A stretch of 33,133 nucleotides of DNA from a virus, in IMG/VR virus record IMGVR_UViG_3300049846_001230, positions 1 to 33,133 of that record, one strand, 5' to 3'. Under the pieces are notes generated by a model. It saw nothing but the letters and a program-made list of their open reading frames with translations, had not been told where the DNA came from and did no database searches. The position numbers and the translations under genes were made by a program. Positions 7,045 to 31,362 of this stretch are shown here, piece after piece (position 1 is the first letter of the stretch; each line of letters opens with the position of its first letter).

Positions 7045-8283
7045 CTACAAAGCGGAGTTGTCTAAAACTGCATAAACGATTTGACCTTCGGCAGGAATAA
7101 ACTTGATTTTCTTCATCGTCACAAGAGTTTTCAGATGCTCGTCAAGCTGAGCCGAGGTTGCATGCTTGTAGGTGTAGCGAACTAAATCCTGCTTAGTCCA
7201 CTGAGGTTTTTTTCTCATCACTTCCCAGACAAGACTAAAAGACATCAGGTTCTTGTTTTCTCCAGTTGTACTAAATGGGGCATACATGTCTGATTCGATT
7301 GTTTCGAGAAGCCTACATGCTGCCATCAGGTGTTCTGGAGTTATAATCAGTTCATCGGACTGGTCAGCAGCAAGAACCTGACTTAGCTTCAAACAATGCC
7401 ACATCTTTCTGGAATAATACGAAGCCATCTCTCCCTTAGGGTTCTCATCTATCTTGGCATTACGTTTTTCGAGAATCTCGTTATAAGCCTCTTTAAAGCC
7501 CTTTGTGGTCTTAAACCTTCCAGCCATACTAGCTATGGAGTTTAAATCAGCTATGAGCTTATTACGCTCCTCTGGAGAGTTTTTAGTCCCTACTTCTTCT
7601 TCGTCAAGCCAGCCTAGGTTTCCTCTGAACCTTTCTTTCTCTGAAATAAACAGAACTCTGGAAGCAAATCCCCCTGCTATTCCGTTCTTTCCTATAGCCT
7701 CCATCAGCCATGTCGGAGTAGAGCAGTAGAGCAGGTTTAAGCATGGGTTGAAAATAGTTATGTCTCCTCCGCTGAGCGTTTCCTTATTCCAGCCCTTTTT
7801 CACTGACCAGATATTCGGATCGCCGCAATCGTAGAAGTCAGTAAGAAGCTCCTGCACTCCTCCTAAACCCTTAGCGTCACCTATGGTTACTTTAGCTTCA
7901 GACGAGTAGCTGAAAATGCTTGAGTTCTTATAAACCACTCCTTCATATTCAAAAGTCTTTCTGTTTCCAGCATCAGACATTTGCTTGATTAGGCTTGCTC
8001 CACTCATTTGAGTAGACATGAAGTTCAGCCCATCTACTTCATAAAGCAGTTCCATGATTGCTCTGCCGGCTGTAGATTTATTTGCTATTCCTGAGTCAGC
8101 TATCAGCATCACGAATAGATTCGGAAAGATTACCTGAGTTCCGTTGTAAACTATCCAAGTCCTGCGCTCCAAGCATCCAGCTATTCCTGAGATTGCAGAC
8201 CAAAGGAGAAACTTCTGACTTACTCCTAAGTTTTTGTTGTAGTCCAAAAAGGCTTCAATGAAGCTTGGATAATTCCTAGACAT
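7045..8283 (-). CDS. DUF3987-family primase-helicase-like ATPase
   Basis: The product has 412 residues. The N-terminal helix (FIEAFLDYNKNLGVSQKF), a P-loop-like VMLIADSGIANKSTAG at about residues 58-73, an acidic SYSSEA near 125-130, CLNLLYCSTPTW at 181-192 and an arginine in GGFASRVLF (about R209) match the layout of DUF3987/YfjI proteins. The P-loop keeps K69-S70-T71 but has Asn where Gly normally precedes Lys. The C-terminal part resembles a winged helix (QWTKQDLVRYTYKHATSAQLDEHL). It overlaps the polymerase stop by 8 nt and has GGAGG upstream of ATG 8283. It is probably the replicative helicase or loader, as no DnaB-type helicase is visible. Confidence 0.75.
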   Translation of the reverse strand: MSRNYPSFIEAFLDYNKNLGVSQKFLLWSAISGIAGCLERRTWIVYNGTQVIFPNLFVMLIADSGIANKSTAGRAIMELLYEVDGLNFMSTQMSGASLIKQMSDAGNRKTFEYEGVVYKNSSIFSYSSEAKVTIGDAKGLGGVQELLTDFYDCGDPNIWSVKKGWNKETLSGGDITIFNPCLNLLYCSTPTWLMEAIGKNGIAGGFASRVLFISEKERFRGNLGWLDEEEVGTKNSPEERNKLIADLNSIASMAGRFKTTKGFKEAYNEILEKRNAKIDENPKGEMASYYSRKMWHCLKLSQVLAADQSDELIITPEHLMAACRLLETIESDMYAPFSTTGENKNLMSFSLVWEVMRKKPQWTKQDLVRYTYKHATSAQLDEHLKTLVTMKKIKFIPAEGQIVYAVLDNSAL

Positions 8284-10531
8284 CTTTCAGTCCTCCCCAG
8301 ACAGTTCCCATTCTAAACCTAGGAACAGGATAGCATGCTCCGAACTGGGTTTTAACAATAAGCTGCCACGAACTGCACTTGCTGATTATTTCATAAGCTT
8401 CCTCTAGACTACCTGCTTGAACCAAAACTGATCTTGAGTTCAAAGCAACAACAGGAAGATCGGCAGATGTAATCAGATTGTTTAACACATCAGCCTGTAA
8501 GCTCCTAAAGCCCCACTGGTAAGCCTTTTTGAACAGATCGTCATTGATCCTGTCATAGAACACAATCTCGCGCCCTAAGAGGTTCTTGAGCCTTCTGGTA
8601 GTCCTTATGCTGTATTGTATTCTCTCCTGACGCTTCCTGAGCCCAGGGAACAGCTCAAACACTATTCCTATGAATCTTTTTGCTTCAACTTCAGAAACAT
8701 ACTTGTCGTGAAAAGCCATGAGCTTAGTAGCTAAAGCTCTGGCCGAAACGCCATAAGCCGCTTCAGACAAAACCATAGAGGCTATTCTGAACTCAGCACT
8801 TCTGGGGTTTATAATCCCTACAGCTTTGTTAAATAGCGAAGCAGCTAAATGAGCAGAGATCGAATCTCCAGCGGAAATTAGTCTGATCATTCTTGAATCC
8901 CCTGAGTCCAAAGCAAGATACTCCTGCTCAAAGTTATTAAGCCTGATTTCTACAAACTCACACCCTTCGTCAGCGACTATGCAGCTCTTGGTTTTTCTAG
9001 GAAGCATCTCAAGGTCAAAGCCAGATCCGAAAGGATTCTTTGAACTCCCCCACTCTCCGAACTCATTATAAACAGCATCAAGAGAAAACCTGACTCGGCC
9101 ATCCTGATCAAAGTTAAAGTTAAAATAGCTGTCTAGCTCAGAATTAAGCTTGCTGAGCTTTACTAAATCCTTAAGCAACTCCTCTTTTGGGTTTGACTTT
9201 CTGAGCTTAGCTAACGCTTCTTTGTTTACCGTTTCACTTCCGGCCTTGGTTGGAATCTTGATCCCGATCTCTTTAAGCATTTCTTTGATTTGCTTTGGTG
9301 AATTTATATTCACTTTTCTATCAAGCCTTTTTTGAGTCTGCTCATCAAACCTAGCCTGAATCTGCTCTATATCTCGCTCAGTATCTTTTCTTGCTGCCTC
9401 AAGCAATTCTGAAGAAATCTTCAGTCCTTCGTTGGTCATCTTCTGAGCCTTCTGAAAAAGCTTCATATAGTTCTGAAACATCGGCATAAGACCTCGCTGC
9501 TCCAAATCAGCCTGCATGTTAATCTTTGCTTCAAACGTCCCACAGGTGTCTTTGCAGTTATAGCTCAGATGATCTCTCCAGTTACGAACATTGTTCCAGT
9601 CCGAATGATCATCTTTCCAATAAGGCTGACGAGTATAGATTCTGCCTACATTATCCAAACCCTTATCAAGCGTAGGGTGAAGTAGCTTCATAGCCCACAT
9701 GGTCTCAAAGCTTACGTTCTGAAGCCTTATTCCATACAGGCTAGCCCACTGAGATTCATACAAAGCATTTTGAGCAAGCTTCGGAATATCCGACTCAAGA
9801 ACTTTAGCAATCAGGCTCCAGAGCTTATGGTATTGAGCAGGGGTGTATGAACTTGGCAGTACATCAATCGCTATGGCTTCTTTGGGGCTAATCGCAAAAC
9901 CATGTGTGTTGACCAATCCTCTGCCTGTCTCTACATCTATTGAAAGCTCTGGAGCCTTTAAGACTTTGTTTTCTAAATAATCAACTATCTGTTCAAACGA
10001 AAGGTCAAGGCTGAGCAGAAACTTGCGATCTGGGAGCTCTAAGTTTTTGCTGTGGGACTCTGCTTTAATTCGTTGGCACCCGAAAGATATGTAAGCTTGA
10101 GACGCATAATCTCGCTGAACATACTCTGGGTGAAGGAGGGGAATCGCTTTCCTGTCTCCGAACTCAGCCTTGACTTTCAAAATACTACAATGTTGCTTAT
10201 TTATGTTTTCTAATCCGGTAATAAAATTAAGGGCATGCTCGCCCAACGGAACTATAACATTAGCTCCAGAATCGTTTATAATCTTCTTGCAAGCTATTCG
10301 AGCCAACACTCTTTGATCTTCGTTTACGTTGGATAGGTTTAATCCTGGAGGCATAAAGGGATACATGACTGTAAAGGCATAGTCTGATTCAGGAACCCCA
10401 GCCCTGTTTAGGGCATTAACTATAAGTGATTTTCTTTGATCGTTTAAAACTACTCCCAGAGCGTTTTCGTCTGGTCTTAAGAAATCCGATACGAATAAAA
10501 TTTTTATGCCTGAAAGACTGCCCTCTAACAT
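8276..10531 (-). CDS. UDG-like / 3'-5' exonuclease / family A DNA polymerase fusion with degenerate polymerase motifs
   Basis: The product has 751 residues in three parts. Residues about 8-150 resemble a family 4 uracil-DNA glycosylase (VPLGEHALNFITG, LLHPEYV, MYPFMPPG) but lack the usual GEAPG-type first motif and Fe-S cysteines. Residues about 195-335 form a proofreading exonuclease with D199-x-E201, N255 with E259 in place of the second Asp, and Y324-x3-D328. Residues about 360-751 have the family A frame (VNINSPKQI, SSKNPFGSGFDLEMLPR, YG at 593-594, GTVWGGLK). In that frame the motif A Asp aligns with R530, the motif C His-Asp aligns with S699-R700, the motif B Lys aligns with Ser, and the TGR arginine with Glu. 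E535 is kept. Polymerase activity is therefore doubtful. A terminator-like hairpin lies just upstream. Confidence 0.85.
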   Translation of the reverse strand: MLEGSLSGIKILFVSDFLRPDENALGVVLNDQRKSLIVNALNRAGVPESDYAFTVMYPFMPPGLNLSNVNEDQRVLARIACKKIINDSGANVIVPLGEHALNFITGLENINKQHCSILKVKAEFGDRKAIPLLHPEYVQRDYASQAYISFGCQRIKAESHSKNLELPDRKFLLSLDLSFEQIVDYLENKVLKAPELSIDVETGRGLVNTHGFAISPKEAIAIDVLPSSYTPAQYHKLWSLIAKVLESDIPKLAQNALYESQWASLYGIRLQNVSFETMWAMKLLHPTLDKGLDNVGRIYTRQPYWKDDHSDWNNVRNWRDHLSYNCKDTCGTFEAKINMQADLEQRGLMPMFQNYMKLFQKAQKMTNEGLKISSELLEAARKDTERDIEQIQARFDEQTQKRLDRKVNINSPKQIKEMLKEIGIKIPTKAGSETVNKEALAKLRKSNPKEELLKDLVKLSKLNSELDSYFNFNFDQDGRVRFSLDAVYNEFGEWGSSKNPFGSGFDLEMLPRKTKSCIVADEGCEFVEIRLNNFEQEYLALDSGDSRMIRLISAGDSISAHLAASLFNKAVGIINPRSAEFRIASMVLSEAAYGVSARALATKLMAFHDKYVSEVEAKRFIGIVFELFPGLRKRQERIQYSIRTTRRLKNLLGREIVFYDRINDDLFKKAYQWGFRSLQADVLNNLITSADLPVVALNSRSVLVQAGSLEEAYEIISKCSSWQLIVKTQFGACYPVPRFRMGTVWGGLKDV

Positions 10532-10553
10532 TTAAGCCCCCGTAAATGTATTG

Positions 10554-10590
10554 ATGAAAAAAAGAAAGCCGAAGTTAGGCGGGGTTCGGC
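10554..10590 (-). terminator. Rho-independent terminator upstream of the polymerase gene
   Basis: Read on the minus strand, GCCGAA (10590-10585) and TTCGGC (10573-10568) form a 6-bp stem around a 10-11-nt C-rich loop, followed at once by TTTCTTTTTTT. It sits between the SSB-like gene and the polymerase gene, so it would lower expression of polymerase and downstream genes relative to the SSB-like gene. Confidence 0.7.
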
Positions 10591-10633
10591 AAACACCCTT
10601 TTAGCTCGTGCATCGAAGCTGCCTATAAACTTA

Positions 10634-11053
10634 TTAGAACGGAAGCTTTAAGCTTTTAACAGCCTTAACTTCTGGATAGCCTGAAGGCGTTCCATCTTGG
10701 TTTTTCCCCTCAACCAAAGTGATGCTAATTTCAGAGCCAACTAAAGTTGACCAGTCAAAAGCTCCCCCTGCAAAGTCCTCATTCTTACAAGCTTTATATA
10801 AGCCTTTAAGCATCCCTGCGCCTTTACCAGAAAGCATAGTGTTATACCAAGCTTTATGGTTATTGAAGCGAGTAAGGTCGCCTTCAGCTCCAAAGATCGT
10901 GAACTCCCATTTGATGTAGTTTGCGCCCGAACTCTTAGCTGTCTTAAGCTCTAAGCCCGTTACTCGCGCTGAGTAAACTCCAGGAACCACTCCTGTTAAT
11001 TCGACTGCTTCAGATAAATCCGGCGCTATCAAAAAGTTTTGTGGGATTGTCAT
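10634..11053 (-). CDS. DUF669-like single-stranded DNA-binding protein candidate
   Basis: The product has 139 residues. The pattern GVYSARVTGLELKTAKSSGANY followed by I-K-W-E-F-T-I-F, then RFNNHKAWYNT and GMLKGLYKACKNEDF, matches the DUF669 type found next to Sak4-like recombinases, which is thought to act as a phage SSB. An in-frame GTG at 11074 lies before the ribosome site, whereas ATG 11053 follows AAAGGAG at the right distance and is chosen. Two hairpins lie in its leader (11066-11108), and a terminator follows it. Partners are probably the Sak4-like ATPase upstream and the replication proteins downstream. Confidence 0.7.
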   Translation of the reverse strand: MTIPQNFLIAPDLSEAVELTGVVPGVYSARVTGLELKTAKSSGANYIKWEFTIFGAEGDLTRFNNHKAWYNTMLSGKGAGMLKGLYKACKNEDFAGGAFDWSTLVGSEISITLVEGKNQDGTPSGYPEVKAVKSLKLPF

Positions 11054-11065
11054 GTTTTCTCCTTT

Positions 11066-11108
11066 GAGAGTCACTAAACTCTCGGTTGTTAGTAAGCATT
11101 ATTGCTTA
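11066..11108 (-). promoter_or_regulatory. Two hairpins in the leader of the SSB-like gene
   Basis: GAGAGT (11066-11071) pairs with ACTCTC (11078-11083) across a 6-nt loop, ending just before the AAAGGAG ribosome site. TAAGCA/TGCTTA (11093-11098 and 11103-11108) forms a second small hairpin upstream. Placement against the ribosome site suggests control of translation or mRNA stability, which is an inference. Confidence 0.4.
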
Positions 11109-11115
11109 TCTAAAA

Positions 11116-11415
11116 TTATTTTAAAGTTACAGGAAGTATGTCTACACCAATCGGCTGAGTCATGTTCGGGTGATCATAGCCCTCAAACCTTAGGCTCAAA
11201 TCCCCAGCGCAGATAATGTTTTCTATATGACTACCAAGATTCTGTAAGTTCGCATCAAGATCATGCTTCAGATCCTCATGCAAAGCTATTCCTGTAGCCA
11301 TAAGTTCTTCTTTGGATCGGTAAATCATGTCGTAAGCAAGTAAGATCATGCGATCTTCAGCGTTCAGCCCATGAGTGTTTATCGGGTAGCGGAGCTTAGG
11401 GAATGATCCGATCAT
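11116..11415 (-). CDS. Hypothetical protein in the recombination cassette
   Basis: The product has 99 residues and no recognised family. The C-terminal half is helical then beta-rich (DANLQNLGSHIENIICAGDLSLRFEGYDHPN). Its start overlaps the stop of the Sak4-like gene by 4 nt (ATGA), so the two are translationally coupled. It sits between the ATPase and the SSB-like protein, where many phages encode an accessory recombination or replication protein. No function is claimed. Confidence 0.6.
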   Translation of the reverse strand: MIGSFPKLRYPINTHGLNAEDRMILLAYDMIYRSKEELMATGIALHEDLKHDLDANLQNLGSHIENIICAGDLSLRFEGYDHPNMTQPIGVDILPVTLK

Positions 11416-12161
11416 CTTGCCTTCACAATCTCAGCGTAGTTGGCTGGAATTTCTGGAGGAAGGCCTCTAGCGCTCTTACAAAACGGACTCTTAGGATCTG
11501 CCTTAGTTTGCCAAACGTGCTGACCAGATTGGTTCAGTTTAGCAAAATAAACTTCCTGAAAATATATCCCAAGCTTATTACTCATTTGTCCTGGGAACAT
11601 GAGCTGATTCGTAATCACTCCAGTAGTTTCGTCCTTTTCTCTCATCGTATGACCGATTACAACTACGTTACAGTCCAAAGAAAGTATTCCTGTGATGATT
11701 TGCTTAACGTGAGTCGCAAGCAGGCCGTAGTCTGATTGAGAGTTCTGGTCGGCATTTGGTCGCTTGATCCCAAGCTGACTCACATATCTGTAATCCTCAA
11801 GGATGCTGTCAGCCATTGTGCTAATAGTATCAAGAACAAGAGTTTGAAACGGAAGCGGCTTGCCTGCGTTCTGCAAAGCATAGATGGCATTAAGGTCATC
11901 TAGGAACGCTTGCATGCGTGGTTTTCGTTTGCCGGCTTCGCCTTTGATCGGCATTTTTCCGTACTGAACAACAGAAATAGATTCCAGCACTTCTTTGTTC
12001 TTAGCATGAAACAATGCTGTAGATTCTATCTTATTGTCGAAGTCAGAGTAGTGCTTTATTCCAGGGAATGTTGAGGCTCCGATGCTTTTGCCCGATCCAG
12101 ATTCTCCAGTAAGAAGAACCTTGACGAAGCTTGATCCTGAGCTTAGTTCGCTTAGTTTCAT
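11412..12161 (-). CDS. Sak4-like RecA-fold recombination ATPase
   Basis: The product has 249 residues. Walker A GESGSGKS lies at 19-26, Walker B TLVLD at about 107-111, and a switch-type VVVIGHTMREKDE follows near residue 165. The order and length fit the Sak4 (RadA/RecA-core) single-strand annealing proteins of phages, which usually pair with an SSB encoded nearby; here the DUF669-like gene is two genes downstream. The ribosome site AGGAA precedes ATG 12161. The generic alternative is a phage NTP-binding protein of unknown role. Confidence 0.8.
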   Translation of the reverse strand: MKLSELSSGSSFVKVLLTGESGSGKSIGASTFPGIKHYSDFDNKIESTALFHAKNKEVLESISVVQYGKMPIKGEAGKRKPRMQAFLDDLNAIYALQNAGKPLPFQTLVLDTISTMADSILEDYRYVSQLGIKRPNADQNSQSDYGLLATHVKQIITGILSLDCNVVVIGHTMREKDETTGVITNQLMFPGQMSNKLGIYFQEVYFAKLNQSGQHVWQTKADPKSPFCKSARGLPPEIPANYAEIVKAR

Positions 12162-12258
12162 AGTTTTATTCCTTTGTTGTTTGAGTGAATCTAAGTTTGC
12201 ATGATTTAGGCTTTAAGTCACTGACATAATTTAAGCATGACGCAAAACTGGACTATGG

Positions 12259-12272
12259 TGAATAATTATTCA
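12259..12272. promoter_or_regulatory. 14-bp perfect palindrome upstream of the Sak4-like gene
   Basis: TGAATAATTATTCA is a perfect palindrome in the 139-bp gap between the gene ending at 12301 and the Sak4-like start at 12161. A second short palindrome ATGCGCAT lies at 12287-12294. The position fits an operator for the replication/recombination genes. I could not place a convincing -35/-10 pair around it. Confidence 0.35.
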
Positions 12273-12300
12273 TTCCAAGAAACAATATGCGCATAAGTAT

Positions 12301-12900
12301 TCATAGCCTTGACTCCACATAATTTATAATATGCTCGCACAGCTCTTTTTCGTCTCTCCACGCGCCATCCAGCTCGCTTAGATAACGCTTTATAGACCAT
12401 TTCCATAACTTATTATTTTCAGTCCAGAACTTGTAAAGGCCATAAGCCTCACACGCTGCAATCGTTTGAAATGGCTCCTCTAGCGGTTGAAATTTAGCAT
12501 GAATGTAAACCTCTAACTTAGCCCATAAGTATTGCCAAAAATAAGGCTTGCCACGTTTAGCGATTGTTTCGACTCCATGAAGTGATGGCGGTACAAAGTC
12601 TTTGCCTGTGATGTATTCTGTTTTTATTAAATCATTTAGTTGTTCGTCTTTTTTTGCTTGCTTTAAAAGTCCTACCATAAGTAACCAAGCCTGATCGCGG
12701 CTGAAATCATGTTTTGAGGCCACGCATCTTTGATAAATCGGTTCTTTTTTCTTGGCGGTCATGTCTTTAATAAAAATATAACGAGTAAGACTAACAGCCT
12801 GTGGATGCTCAGTAATTGCAAGAATTCCAGCTAAATGACTTGAATCTTCGGAATCGCTCGAGCCGTTAATGCAGGGGTAGCCGTATTCATCAAATCTCAT
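12301..12900 (-). CDS. Conserved-type phage protein of unknown function, 199 residues
   Basis: The product starts MRFDEYGYPCING and contains CVASKHDFSRDQAWLLMVGLL, a pattern I associate with an uncharacterised phage family, but no domain name can be given. It is helical and Trp-rich near the C terminus (WKWSIKRYLSELDGAWRDEKEL). It lies alone between two non-coding gaps (12162-12300 and 12901-13011), so it may have its own promoter. GAAAG lies upstream of ATG 12900. No membrane segment or catalytic motif is seen. Confidence 0.6.
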   Translation of the reverse strand: MRFDEYGYPCINGSSDSEDSSHLAGILAITEHPQAVSLTRYIFIKDMTAKKKEPIYQRCVASKHDFSRDQAWLLMVGLLKQAKKDEQLNDLIKTEYITGKDFVPPSLHGVETIAKRGKPYFWQYLWAKLEVYIHAKFQPLEEPFQTIAACEAYGLYKFWTENNKLWKWSIKRYLSELDGAWRDEKELCEHIINYVESRL

Positions 12901-12936
12901 TCGTTCTACTTTCTTTTACTTTCGTGCTATTTTTAT

Positions 12937-12958
12937 GAACCTTATGTGACTTAGGTTC
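12937..12958. repeat. Inverted repeat flanked by a short direct repeat
   Basis: GAACCT (12937-12942) and AGGTTC (12953-12958) form a 6-bp stem with a 10-nt loop. CTATTTTTAT occurs immediately on both sides. On the plus strand this resembles a terminator, but no plus-strand gene reads into it. On the minus strand it lies in the leader of the 199-residue gene, between it and the tRNA. Role unknown. Confidence 0.4.
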
Positions 12959-13011
12959 TATTTTTATACACTTTGCAGTATTATTAACTGCTTTTATTAT
13001 ACTTTTAAAGT

Positions 13012-13101
13012 TGGTGCGTTGTGATGGACTTGAACCACCACGCCCCTTTACAGAGACACAGATTTACAGTCTGCTGCCTTACCAATTCGGCACAACAACG
13101 C
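13012..13101 (-). tRNA. tRNA-Tyr (anticodon GUA)
   Basis: Read on the minus strand, GCGTTGT pairs with ACAACGC as a 7-bp acceptor stem, followed by ACCA, so the CCA end is encoded. The anticodon loop is CTGTAAA between GCAGA and TCTGT (GTA, Tyr). A long variable arm gives a class II tRNA, as expected for bacterial tRNA-Tyr. The T arm is GGTGG-TTCAAGT-CCATC. The 5' end lies 4 nt past the lysozyme stop, so it is probably processed from the lysozyme mRNA. Confidence 0.93.
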
Positions 13102-13105
13102 ATGT

Positions 13106-13585
13106 TTATATTTTTAAAAACAATTCACTTTCTGTTTTTCTTCTCTTAACCAAGCCATTTAACTTGATCTTTTTACCTGTCTTGCTGTCAGTAGCGTAAA
13201 CCCATTTATTAAACTCATTCGCAGCGCCTTGAAAATCTCCGGCGTTTAGTTTTTTCAAAAGCGTAGAGTCTCCAAACCCCTCTGCAATAGCATCCTCGTC
13301 TTTATCCAAACCAACATTGTAAGCAAATGATACCAACGCCCCAAGCTGATTGTCATTTATTTTTACAGTCACCATGCCTAAAATTTCTTTCTCAAGGTTT
13401 TCGATGTGCTGGTCTAATTGCCACTCAGCCTGCTCTCTAGTGATTCGATCTGTGATTTTAACCTTTTGCCTAGATGGATAATAAAACGTGGTGCCATACC
13501 CAATCGTGACCTTACCAGCACTACAATAGTAAGCCTTGTCTTTAAAGCCTTCGTAAAACTTAATGATTTCTTTAGCTGAGTTCAT
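13106..13585 (-). CDS. Phage lysozyme, glycoside hydrolase family 24 (endolysin)
   Basis: The product has 159 residues. It shows the T4/P22-type catalytic set E12-x8-C21-x5-T27 within KFYEGFKDKAYYCSAGKVTIGYG; Cys in the second position occurs in some lambdoid-type endolysins. Length and the C-terminal helices (NQLGALVSFAYNVG; WVYATDSKTGKKIKLNGLVKRR) fit GH24. There is no signal-anchor segment at the N terminus, so release would need a holin. ATG 13585 overlaps the stop of the 47-residue gene (ATGA). It cleaves peptidoglycan glycan strands. It lies in the leftward block, away from the late genes. Confidence 0.95.
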   Translation of the reverse strand: MNSAKEIIKFYEGFKDKAYYCSAGKVTIGYGTTFYYPSRQKVKITDRITREQAEWQLDQHIENLEKEILGMVTVKINDNQLGALVSFAYNVGLDKDEDAIAEGFGDSTLLKKLNAGDFQGAANEFNKWVYATDSKTGKKIKLNGLVKRRKTESELFLKI

Positions 13586-13725
13586 AAGTCACCAATATAT
13601 TCACATTTAAACTCTTTTTCTTGAATTCCGTACATATAAAAATAGCCTTTTCTTTTTCTTCTGTATGGACTGAACCAGAACATATCAATCCAAGCATTAT
13701 AATAAACATAAACTTTTTTACTCAT
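13582..13725 (-). CDS. 47-residue basic aromatic protein, coupled to lysozyme
   Basis: The frame starts at ATG 13725 within the stop of the 28-residue gene and stops at TGA 13582 across the lysozyme ATG, so it has 4-nt overlaps at both ends. The product is rich in Tyr, Phe, Lys and Arg (YNAWIDMFWFSPYRRKRKGY) and has one Cys. It is not a clear transmembrane protein. No family is recognised. The double coupling is the main evidence that it is real. Confidence 0.55.
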   Translation of the reverse strand: MSKKVYVYYNAWIDMFWFSPYRRKRKGYFYMYGIQEKEFKCEYIGDL

Positions 13726-13808
13726 GCGTTTCTCATCACCATACTTAAAAAATAAACGCCCATTCCTAAATTTGCAAACGATAATGTAAGTGAAATTGTT
13801 TCGGTCAT
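13722..13808 (-). CDS. 28-residue single-TM microprotein upstream of lysozyme
   Basis: ATG 13808 overlaps the stop of the 136-residue gene, and TGA 13722 overlaps the next ATG. The product is almost all one hydrophobic helix (residues about 5-24, with LTLSFANLGMGVYFLSMVM) with a short basic end. It is two genes before the endolysin, where a holin or a pinholin-like peptide could sit, but 28 residues is short for known holins and the role is only a possibility. Confidence 0.5.
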   Translation of the reverse strand: MTETISLTLSFANLGMGVYFLSMVMRNA

Positions 13809-14215
13809 TTTGATGCCTTTGTTAGTTGTTCTAGTTGCTTTTTTATCTCATTAGCTTTCCAGTCAGGGTCTTTAACAGTGCTAGGGTCTTCCCAATTTGC
13901 GTCGTCTGCATAAAAATCATTACTCTCTTTGAGTAGTTTGATTACAGCTTCCTGCGCCGCTAGTTTTACTTTCGTCTGACCAAGTTCCCAAGCTGCTTCT
14001 TGCCAGTTGTTAAAGGCTTTACTAAAATGTTGCTCTTGCTCTTTAACCCTCTGCTCAAGCTGCTCAACGGCGGTGTATTCGATTGCTCTAATACCTACTG
14101 TTATTTCACTCAAAAACGGCGGTAATGTTTCATACCTCTCCACGTTTATTTTCTCTTTTTCAGTTCCTAAGTCTGTTGGATAAATCCAAAACTCTCTCGG
14201 CTTATCTGTTTTCAT
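13805..14215 (-). CDS. Coiled-coil phage protein (KPREFWIYP family-like), 136 residues
   Basis: The N terminus MKTDKPREFWIYP, followed by an IEYTAVEQLEQRVKEQEQ helix, is a pattern found in many small phage accessory proteins of unknown function. Residues about 50-100 form a coiled coil, and the C-terminal part is acidic then basic. ATG 14215 starts one base after the stop of the 34-residue Cys-pair gene. No enzyme motif is present. Confidence 0.6.
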   Translation of the reverse strand: MKTDKPREFWIYPTDLGTEKEKINVERYETLPPFLSEITVGIRAIEYTAVEQLEQRVKEQEQHFSKAFNNWQEAAWELGQTKVKLAAQEAVIKLLKESNDFYADDANWEDPSTVKDPDWKANEIKKQLEQLTKASK

Positions 14216-29835: not shown

Positions 29836-31362
29836 TTGACAGACATAACGGCTTCAATAGAAAGATATATTTATTATAAAAACAACAAGTGGGCTTTTCT
29901 GACCCAATGCTGCTACACCAAAGATGAAGTAAATGTAAAAGATCCGATTAAGCTTATGCCTGACAAGGAATATCTTGAACTTTATGCTACTCTTTGGGAG
30001 CGTTATCCGCTTTTAGCTATTCCAAAGACTCGTCGTATGACGTTTTCATGGACTACAATATGCCTATATCTGCATGATGCTATCTTTAACAGAGTTAGGA
30101 ACTTTGCTTTCGTTTCTAAGAAAGAAGATGACGCTGATGACTTAATCAGAAGGGCTAAGTTCATATTTGACCACATTCCTGAGGACAAGATTCCGAGAGC
30201 TCTGCTACCTGAGTGCGAATACAAGTTCAATCATCTTAGCTTTCCGAGTCTTGATTCTAAAATCAGGGGCTTTCCTCAGGGAGCAGATCAGCTTCGTCAG
30301 TTTACGTTTTCTGGAATCTTTGGGGATGAGTCAGCTTTCTGGGATCAGGCTGAGGAGTTTTATTCAGCAACCTTTCCTACAATTGATGGTGGCGGCCGTA
30401 TGACTCTGGTTTCTTCTCCAGCTCCAGGCTTCTTTAAGCGTTTATGCTTTGATGCTATGGACGTACCAGGTGACATTAACGTAACTGAGCATCAGCCTAA
30501 CTACACTTCTCCTATGCAGGGTGTGAGGCTTTGGAAGAACAAGAAAAACAGATTCTTGGTTCTTGAGATTCACTATACTGCCGATCCAACTAAGCGTGAT
30601 CCGAGCTATAAGGAATCGATTAAAAACTCTATGCCTTTGCCCAAATACCTTAGGGAATATGAGCTTGAATGGGACACCTACTCTGGTCAGCCTGTTTATC
30701 CTGAGTTCAATCAGAATGTCCATGTTGTGCATGATGAGCCTAAGCCCAGCTTTGGGCTTCCGATGCTGATAGCTTGGGACTTCGGACTCACTCCTGCTGC
30801 TGTTGTTGGTCAGTACGAGGGCAACACTCTTTATGTGATGAAAGAGTTTACCGGAATAAACATTGGGGCTGAGAGATTTGTTCCTCAGGTGATTGCTCAG
30901 CTTAGGCTGCTTTATCCTGAGTTTTCTGATCTCAAAAAACACTGGAAATGCTGGGTCGATCCATCTGGGTTTAACAGAAACGACAACGATGAGCGCAGAA
31001 CTGCCGATACTGTTGCTAAAAATGGCTTCAATCCGATGCCTGGAGGGATAACTTGGGAAGGCAGAAGGCAATCTGTAGCAGATTTGCTCTCTAAGCTTGA
31101 CAAAGGGCTCCCGACTTTTCAGATTTATGAAAAAGGCTGTCCAGTTTTGGTTAAAGGCTTTAAAGGCGGCTACCATTATCCTGACAAAAACATGGAGATA
31201 GCCCCGAATCAGCTACGACCTGTGAAAAACGCTGCATCTCATCCTCACGATTGTCTACAATATATTTGCGGTGGAATAAAAAGCATTAAGGCTGATTATG
31301 GCTTTACTATTCCTACGCCTTCATACAGTAAGGACATGAGAAATGGCAGAACAAAATACTGA
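29836..31362 (+). CDS. Terminase large subunit (TerL)
   Basis: The product has 508 residues from TTG 29836, with AAGGAG five bases upstream. The ATPase domain has LLAIPKTRRMTFSW at about 59-72 in place of a standard Walker A, and Walker B FGDESAF with D164-E165, then a coupling motif LVSSPAPG. The nuclease domain has AWDFGLTP (D315), WVDPSG (D375) and SHPHDCLQY (D472). It cuts and pumps DNA into the procapsid with TerS and the portal. It overlaps the portal start by 20 nt. Confidence 0.92.
   Translation: MTDITASIERYIYYKNNKWAFLTQCCYTKDEVNVKDPIKLMPDKEYLELYATLWERYPLLAIPKTRRMTFSWTTICLYLHDAIFNRVRNFAFVSKKEDDADDLIRRAKFIFDHIPEDKIPRALLPECEYKFNHLSFPSLDSKIRGFPQGADQLRQFTFSGIFGDESAFWDQAEEFYSATFPTIDGGGRMTLVSSPAPGFFKRLCFDAMDVPGDINVTEHQPNYTSPMQGVRLWKNKKNRFLVLEIHYTADPTKRDPSYKESIKNSMPLPKYLREYELEWDTYSGQPVYPEFNQNVHVVHDEPKPSFGLPMLIAWDFGLTPAAVVGQYEGNTLYVMKEFTGINIGAERFVPQVIAQLRLLYPEFSDLKKHWKCWVDPSGFNRNDNDERRTADTVAKNGFNPMPGGITWEGRRQSVADLLSKLDKGLPTFQIYEKGCPVLVKGFKGGYHYPDKNMEIAPNQLRPVKNAASHPHDCLQYICGGIKSIKADYGFTIPTPSYSKDMRNGRTKY

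What the first reader, a model, noticed from the sequence alone, without database searches (positions are those of the whole stretch)
8276..10531. Family A DNA polymerase whose catalytic aspartates look replaced by arginine
Aligned by eye to phage PolA-type sequences, the motif A I-D-L-S-Q-A-E reads I-R-L-N-N-F-E (Asp to R530), motif C V-H-D-S reads N-S-R-S (Asp to R700), the motif B O-helix has Ser in place of Lys and of the Phe/His, and T-G-R reads F-G-E. The exonuclease metal residues (D199, E201, E259, Y324, D328) remain. Both metal-binding Asp turning into Arg is not a neutral drift pattern. The protein may be an exonuclease or scaffold, with the host supplying polymerisation, or a new polymerase variant.
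Basis: partly seen in the sequence, partly recalled or inferred. Interest (0 to 1): 0.85.

Follow-up and report, generated by a model that had tools for sequence, protein, structure and literature searches.

The report
Phage DNA polymerase lacking catalytic residues
A small group of uncultured phages carries, where their relatives keep the DNA-copying enzyme, a well-folded, conserved version whose copying site is destroyed (an essential aspartate is an arginine in all three known members) while the residues of its DNA-trimming site are kept, which suggests the phage has the host copy its DNA and keeps this protein for trimming or holding DNA.

Summary
The gene is real: window 8276-10531, minus strand, 751 aa, an N-terminal uracil-glycosylase-like region, a 3'-5' exonuclease and a family-A polymerase domain. 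The polymerase site is destroyed. Motif A Asp (Klenow D705) is Arg530. Two independent contigs (L091, 65% identical; L095, 45%), same gene order, also have Arg there; 113/113 other scorable relatives have Asp. Other polymerase-site residues (R668, K758, F762-position, Q849 equivalents) are lost too. The exonuclease residues persist, but D424 has become Glu259 in all three, so 'remain' is slightly too strong. The lineage's polymerase domain diverged far more than its exonuclease domain; none of 1,653 pairs of intact relatives shows such a gap. ORFs are intact; AlphaFold gives a confident PolA fold (pLDDT 93.5). No second polymerase was found; the missing ~6 kb is inferred to be structural. Best reading: a polymerase-dead PolA kept as a 3'-5' exonuclease/DNA-binding protein, with synthesis by the host. 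Activity is untested. The literature held describes the mirror image (phage divPolA1: exonuclease dead, polymerase intact), not this.

The parts
8276..10531 (-). polymerase-dead PolA homologue, 751 aa (UDG-like, 3'-5' exonuclease, thumb, palm/fingers)
   Evidence: ORF and translation; Pfam PF00476; PHROG 17; AlphaFold pLDDT 93.5, pTM 0.89; Foldseek best hit E. coli Pol I 8oo6 E 1.7e-26
10106..10504 (-). N-terminal uracil-DNA-glycosylase-like region, residues 10-142, degenerate: SDFLR in place of G-[ED]-x-P-G and no PFxG
   Evidence: PF03167 18.6 bits, below cut-off 24.3, against 80.1 bits in relative MW202489; motif read
9482..10036 (-). 3'-5' exonuclease region, residues 166-350
   Evidence: 58-78% identity to the sister proteins, above the polymerase domain in every pair; active-site columns
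9920..9946 (-). Exo I motif L-S-I-D199-V-E201-T-G-R
   Evidence: both acids kept in all three members
9746..9775 (-). Exo II motif A-Q-N-A-L-Y-E259-S-Q-W; Glu where relatives have Asp (Klenow D424)
   Evidence: 87/87 relatives Asp; Glu in all three members
9542..9568 (-). Exo III motif L-S-Y324-N-C-K-D328-T-C
   Evidence: Tyr and Asp invariant
9041..9070 (-). position of T-x-R (Klenow R668), here F-G-E493-W
   Evidence: Arg in 58/58 intact relatives, Glu/Glu/Leu in the three members
8921..8956 (-). motif A, F-V-E-I-R530-L-N-N-F-E-Q-E; R530 codon AGG at 8942-8944
   Evidence: Arg in all three members, Asp in 113/113 other scorable relatives
8744..8800 (-). O-helix (motif B) region with Lys758 and Phe/His762 equivalents replaced by Ser
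8408..8455 (-). motif C region P-V-V-A-L-N-S-R700-S-V-L-V-Q-A-G-S708; no acidic residue in either register
   Evidence: predicted strand 694-697, turn, strand 701-706
7045..8283 (-). DUF3987 primase/helicase-like gene; its start overlaps the end of the polymerase gene by 8 bases (same overlap in L091)
   Evidence: PF13148 and PHROG 14296 'DNA primase'
10634..11074 (-). DUF669 gene, possible SSB-like protein, same replication block
   Evidence: PF05037
11412..12161 (-). Sak4-like single-strand annealing ATPase
   Evidence: PHROG 124, PF13479
15869..16888 (-). PD-(D/E)XK exonuclease of the same module
   Evidence: PF12705, PHROG 1218

Best explanation
The gene encodes the orthologue of the replicative PolA of a group of podovirus-like phages, and in one lineage it has lost DNA synthesis while the folded protein is maintained. 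It most likely works as a 3'-5' exonuclease that still uses the thumb and palm as a DNA-holding platform inside the phage's replication/recombination set (DUF3987 helicase/primase, DUF669 protein, Sak4 annealing protein, PD-(D/E)XK exonuclease), trimming or proofreading 3' ends while a host polymerase does the synthesis. Shown: the sequence changes, one clade, intact ORFs, predicted fold, stronger conservation of the exonuclease than of the polymerase domain. Inferred: no synthesis, active exonuclease, use of host polymerase.
For: Asp705-to-Arg in 3/3 members against Asp in 113/113 relatives. R668, Q677, F762-position and Q849 equivalents are invariant or nearly so in 58 intact relatives and gone in all three. 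D705A eliminates E. coli Pol I polymerase activity (PMC3686724). Exonuclease D199, E201, Y324, D328 and E259 invariant in all three. Polymerase-domain identity is about 0.25 below exonuclease identity in each of the three pairs; none of 1,653 pairs of intact relatives reaches even -0.20. Family-conserved columns are kept in 19 of 47 exonuclease and 13 of 66 polymerase cases, Fisher p 0.02. One clade, SH-aLRT 100, on a long stem. Models of two members with pLDDT 93.5 and 92.6. Orthologous position beside DUF3987 as in complete phage MW202489. No other polymerase among the window's ORFs scanned; the absent ~6 kb corresponds to structural genes of MW202489.
Against: D424A abolishes exonuclease activity in E. 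coli Pol I (PMC3686724) and here that position is Glu, so the exonuclease may be weak or dead. The window is incomplete, so a second polymerase is unlikely but not excluded. Only three members are known, two on contigs of 5-10 kb. dS is saturated, so no reliable dN/dS could be given. PolB2 of archaea was also called inactivated from its residues and proved an active polymerase (PMC8764526).
Confidence: 0.6

Rival explanations
1. Both sites are dead: the Asp-to-Glu change in Exo II also kills the exonuclease, and the protein is a pure DNA-binding scaffold, for example an adaptor that brings the host replicase to phage primer-templates.
For: D424 is essential in Klenow (PMC3686724) and is Glu in all three members; the UDG-like region has lost its motifs as well; the fold is kept.
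Against: A pure scaffold has no reason to keep D199, E201, Y324, D328 and a carboxylate at 259 invariant across 45% identity; the exonuclease domain has the highest share of invariant residues, 53% against 26% for the polymerase domain.
Confidence: 0.22
2. The protein still polymerises, through an unusual site with other metal ligands, or performs another nucleotidyl transfer.
For: PolB2 was wrongly called inactive from motif C substitutions (PMC8764526); in one register L095 keeps QVDDS at motif C; Arg530 is invariant, so the position is under selection.
Against: PolB2 kept a normal motif A; here motif A, the O-helix and the R668, Q677 and Q849 positions are lost together, several of them replaced by different residues in different members, and no conserved acid with an evident ligand role was found in their place.
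Confidence: 0.06
3. Relict gene in decay after the phage turned to the host polymerase.
For: Polymerase and UDG-like motifs are eroding and differ between members; L095 has lost most of the last helix.
Against: Three ORFs down to 42-45% identity without a stop or frameshift, with pN well below pS (0.24 against 0.74 for window-L091), conserved 8-base overlap with DUF3987, confident folds, and an invariant exonuclease site.
Confidence: 0.07
4. Artefact: sequencing error, wrong frame, or AGA/AGG read as another amino acid.
For: None found.
Against: Three independent contigs; Asp to AGG needs three base changes; AGG encodes family-conserved R481 and R661.
Confidence: 0.01

Closest known systems
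UDG-exonuclease-polymerase PolA of phages such as MW202489 (ctMlz233) and Microcystis phage Mel-JY34 (PHROG 17)
   Same: same order of domains, same position beside DUF3987 in the replication block, homologous over the whole length (22-25% identity)
   Different: those keep both catalytic Asp, the O-helix Lys, the T-x-R Arg and, in MW202489, a recognisable UDG motif; this lineage has lost all of them and has Glu for Asp in Exo II
divPolA1 of large Flavobacterium-type phages (PMC11348598)
   Same: divergent PolA with one of its two active sites destroyed, in a replication gene block
   Different: mirror image: divPolA1 keeps the palm residues and has lost the exonuclease; it is encoded in addition to a regular polymerase, which was not found here
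Archaeal PolB2 and the C-terminal half of eukaryotic Pol epsilon ('inactivated' family B polymerases; PMC4104785, PMC2669801)
   Same: polymerase fold kept after substitution of catalytic residues
   Different: family B, not A; in PolB2 the exonuclease is disrupted too; and PolB2 later proved active (PMC8764526)
Bacterial PolX with exonuclease better conserved than polymerase (PMC12926913)
   Same: same pattern of constraint: the nuclease outlives the polymerase
   Different: other polymerase family (X) and other nuclease (PHP)

Membership tests
Family A DNA polymerase (by descent and fold) | significant similarity to PF00476 and Klenow | tested here: met
   72.5 bits against cut-off 34.3; phmmer E 8e-15
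Family A DNA polymerase (by descent and fold) | thumb-palm-fingers fold with N-terminal 3'-5' exonuclease domain | tested here: met
   AlphaFold pTM 0.89; Foldseek to bacterial Pol I structures, TM about 0.7-0.8 by target length
Family A DNA polymerase (as an enzyme) | motif A Asp (Klenow D705) | tested here: not met
   Arg530 in all alignments
Family A DNA polymerase (as an enzyme) | motif C Asp (Klenow D882) | tested here: not met
   Arg700 or Ser708 depending on the register, no acid at either place
Family A DNA polymerase (as an enzyme) | O-helix Lys (K758) and T-x-R Arg (R668) | tested here: not met
   Ser585 and Glu493; both lost in all three members
Family A DNA polymerase (as an enzyme) | template-directed DNA synthesis | not testable with these tools
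   needs purified protein
DEDDy 3'-5' exonuclease | Exo I Asp-x-Glu, Exo III Tyr and Asp | tested here: met
   D199, E201, Y324, D328 in all three members
DEDDy 3'-5' exonuclease | Exo II Asp (Klenow D424) | tested here: inconclusive
   Glu259, a carboxylate but not the canonical residue; 87/87 relatives Asp
divPolA1 | palm catalytic residues conserved, exonuclease inactivated, extra to a regular polymerase | tested here: not met
   the reverse pattern and no second polymerase found in the window
Family 4 uracil-DNA glycosylase domain | G-E-x-P-G and P-F-x-G motifs, PF03167 above cut-off | tested here: not met
   18.6 bits against 24.3; motifs absent in all three members

The most novel reading that the evidence does not exclude
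A phage lineage has turned its own replicative polymerase into a dedicated accessory subunit: a PolA that cannot polymerise but still binds primer-template and proofreads or trims 3' ends in trans for the host replicase, with Arg530 filling the emptied metal site as a phosphate-binding residue.
Probability: 0.25. Interest if true: 0.82.

Novelty: new variant of a known kind. Interest (0 to 1): 0.66.

Why it matters
Phage PolA is used as a marker of replication strategy and is assumed to be the replicase when present. A lineage in which it sits in the replicase position but cannot copy DNA breaks that assumption, and gives a natural separation of proofreading from synthesis in family A: the reverse of the known exonuclease-dead phage PolA variants. 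It makes testable whether a polymerase can be recruited as an exonuclease or scaffold working with a host polymerase. It also warns that homology-based labels (Pfam scores it well above cut-off) do not imply activity.

Tried and rejected
Wrong frame, sequencing error and recoded AGR codons: rejected. Pseudogene: rejected on intact ORFs in three contigs and the conserved overlap with DUF3987. dN/dS: computed by Nei-Gojobori, but synonymous sites are saturated, so only pN against pS and between-domain identity are used. Single-protein scans of viral and prokaryote contigs with the window protein, a degenerate exonuclease motif and a two-sequence profile found nothing, or only L091; the sister contigs were reached through the neighbour DUF3987. 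Clamp-binding motifs: no motif shared by the three proteins. Motif C register: MAFFT variants, hhalign and model topology were compared and do not agree. The AlphaFold models were built on an alignment that already used the hairpin register, so they are not independent evidence on it. The quick tree joins several long branches, so only the unity of the three members is taken from it, not their nearest relatives. An artefact in A8: L069 and L115 show odd residues through misalignment, an intein and a split, not true losses.

Full report
Observation. The window's minus strand at 8276-10531 encodes 751 aa. It matches family-A polymerase well above the Pfam cut-off, PHROG 17 'DNA polymerase' and Klenow, and 674 phage records by tblastn, all below 60% identity. 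Aligned to relatives and to E. coli Pol I, motif A Asp705 is Arg530. The profile of the family aligns its motif A and motif C Asp with D705 and D882 of Klenow, so the assignment of the columns is sound. Neither gives an acid.

Lineage. Searching with the polymerase itself failed, but 80 distant PolA loci were found with a profile, and neighbours led to two close sisters: L091 (65% identity) through DUF3987 and L095 (45%) through a DUF3987 profile. Both have the same gene order (Sak4-like, small gene, DUF669, PolA, DUF3987; L095 has one extra small ORF between PolA and DUF3987), and both have Arg at motif A with codons AGG and AGA. Motif C is Ser or Asn in L091; in L095 it is Asn678 (HNS, hairpin register) or Asp686 (QVDDS). 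Of the other relatives, 113 of 113 scorable sequences have Asp at motif A and 114 of 114 at motif C, split genes included. The three members form one clade with SH-aLRT 100 and a long stem.

Constraint. In 58 intact relatives the positions of R668, Q677, F762 (His here) and Q849 are invariant or nearly so; all are lost in all three members. The exonuclease positions D199, E201, Y324 and D328 are kept, and E259 replaces Asp424 in all three. Window-L091 identity is 0.78 in the exonuclease and 0.53 in the polymerase domain; window-L095 0.58 and 0.34; L091-L095 0.57 and 0.31. Among 1,653 pairs of intact relatives the polymerase domain is on average the more conserved (+0.05), and none falls to -0.20. 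Family-conserved columns are kept in 19 of 47 exonuclease and 13 of 66 polymerase cases (Fisher p 0.02). Synonymous change is saturated, so constraint is judged from these contrasts and from the intact frames, including the 8-base overlap with DUF3987 in the window and L091.

Structure. AlphaFold models of the window protein (pLDDT 93.5, pTM 0.89) and L095 (92.6, 0.88) are complete PolA folds; Foldseek's best PDB matches are E. coli, Aquifex and Bacillus Pol I structures and the apicoplast polymerase. The polymerase domain is thus predicted to be maintained as a folded body after loss of its site. The models used the family alignment and do not test activity or metal binding.

Genome context. 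The record is a 33,133-base linear virus fragment. Its layout follows the complete circular phage MW202489 (40,250 bases), whose polymerase lies in the same place; the part missing from the window corresponds to about 7774-14110 of that record, annotated as virion or hypothetical proteins, and in sister contig L093 the first genes after the portal look like a scaffold and a capsid gene by their sequence (by eye). No other polymerase was recognised among the window ORFs scanned. A second polymerase is therefore unlikely but not excluded.

Mechanism. From established biochemistry, D705A removes polymerase and D424A exonuclease activity of E. coli Pol I (PMC3686724), and the exonuclease site is D355, E357, D424, Y497, D501 (PMC9324360). 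Arg in place of D705 together with loss of the dNTP-binding Lys and of primer-terminus contacts leaves no known route to synthesis. The exonuclease keeps a carboxylate at each metal-ligand position, one of them Glu. The most likely role is a 3'-5' exonuclease with a DNA-holding polymerase body, working with host polymerase in a replication-recombination module; the last step is inference. The main rival is a scaffold with both sites dead. The caution of PolB2, declared inactive from residues but found active (PMC8764526), applies, although PolB2 kept motif A.

Comparison. A survey of 6,560 phage PolA proteins reported divPolA1 with the exonuclease dead and the palm intact, beside a regular polymerase (PMC11348598): the reverse pattern. 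A survey of bacterial polymerases names PolX as the clear case in which a nuclease is better conserved than the polymerase (PMC12926913). The passages read of two viral PolA papers mention no catalytically dead PolA (PMC6302109, PMC9069017). Within the papers held (most subscription journals are not), no polymerase-dead, exonuclease-retaining family-A lineage was found. I therefore rate it a new variant of a known kind.

Noticed in passing
L058, L060, L063, L071, L117, L126, L153, L166 and about 30 further loci, polymerase gene at reference (L080) residues 550-558: In many intact relatives the PolA gene is split into two ORFs at one and the same place, just after N-L-Q-N-I-P and before motif A, the second half in another frame or after a spacer of several hundred bases; catalytic residues are kept in both halves. 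Rfam found no known intron in ten of these loci.
   Followed up: partly
L010 4317-6812: The large terminase of the closest sister contig carries an insert of about 320 aa with a LAGLIDADG domain after W-D-F-G-L, intein-like, absent from the window's terminase at 29836-31362.
   Followed up: partly
L115 2672-5194; L051 and L052 from 5755: PolA genes of relatives with intein-like inserts: in Exo III of L115 (Pfam Intein_splicing) and in motif B of L051/L052 by sequence.
   Followed up: partly
window 11412-12161, L091 420-1172, L095 1733-2485: The Sak4-like protein of L091 is hardly closer to the window's (64%) than L095's is (60%), although the flanking DUF669 and DUF3987 proteins are 80-84% identical between window and L091: possible gene replacement by recombination.
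   Followed up: no
window 10106-10504: The N-terminal UDG-like region has lost its catalytic motifs in all three members, while 34 of 58 intact relatives keep G-[ED]-x-P-G.
   Followed up: partly
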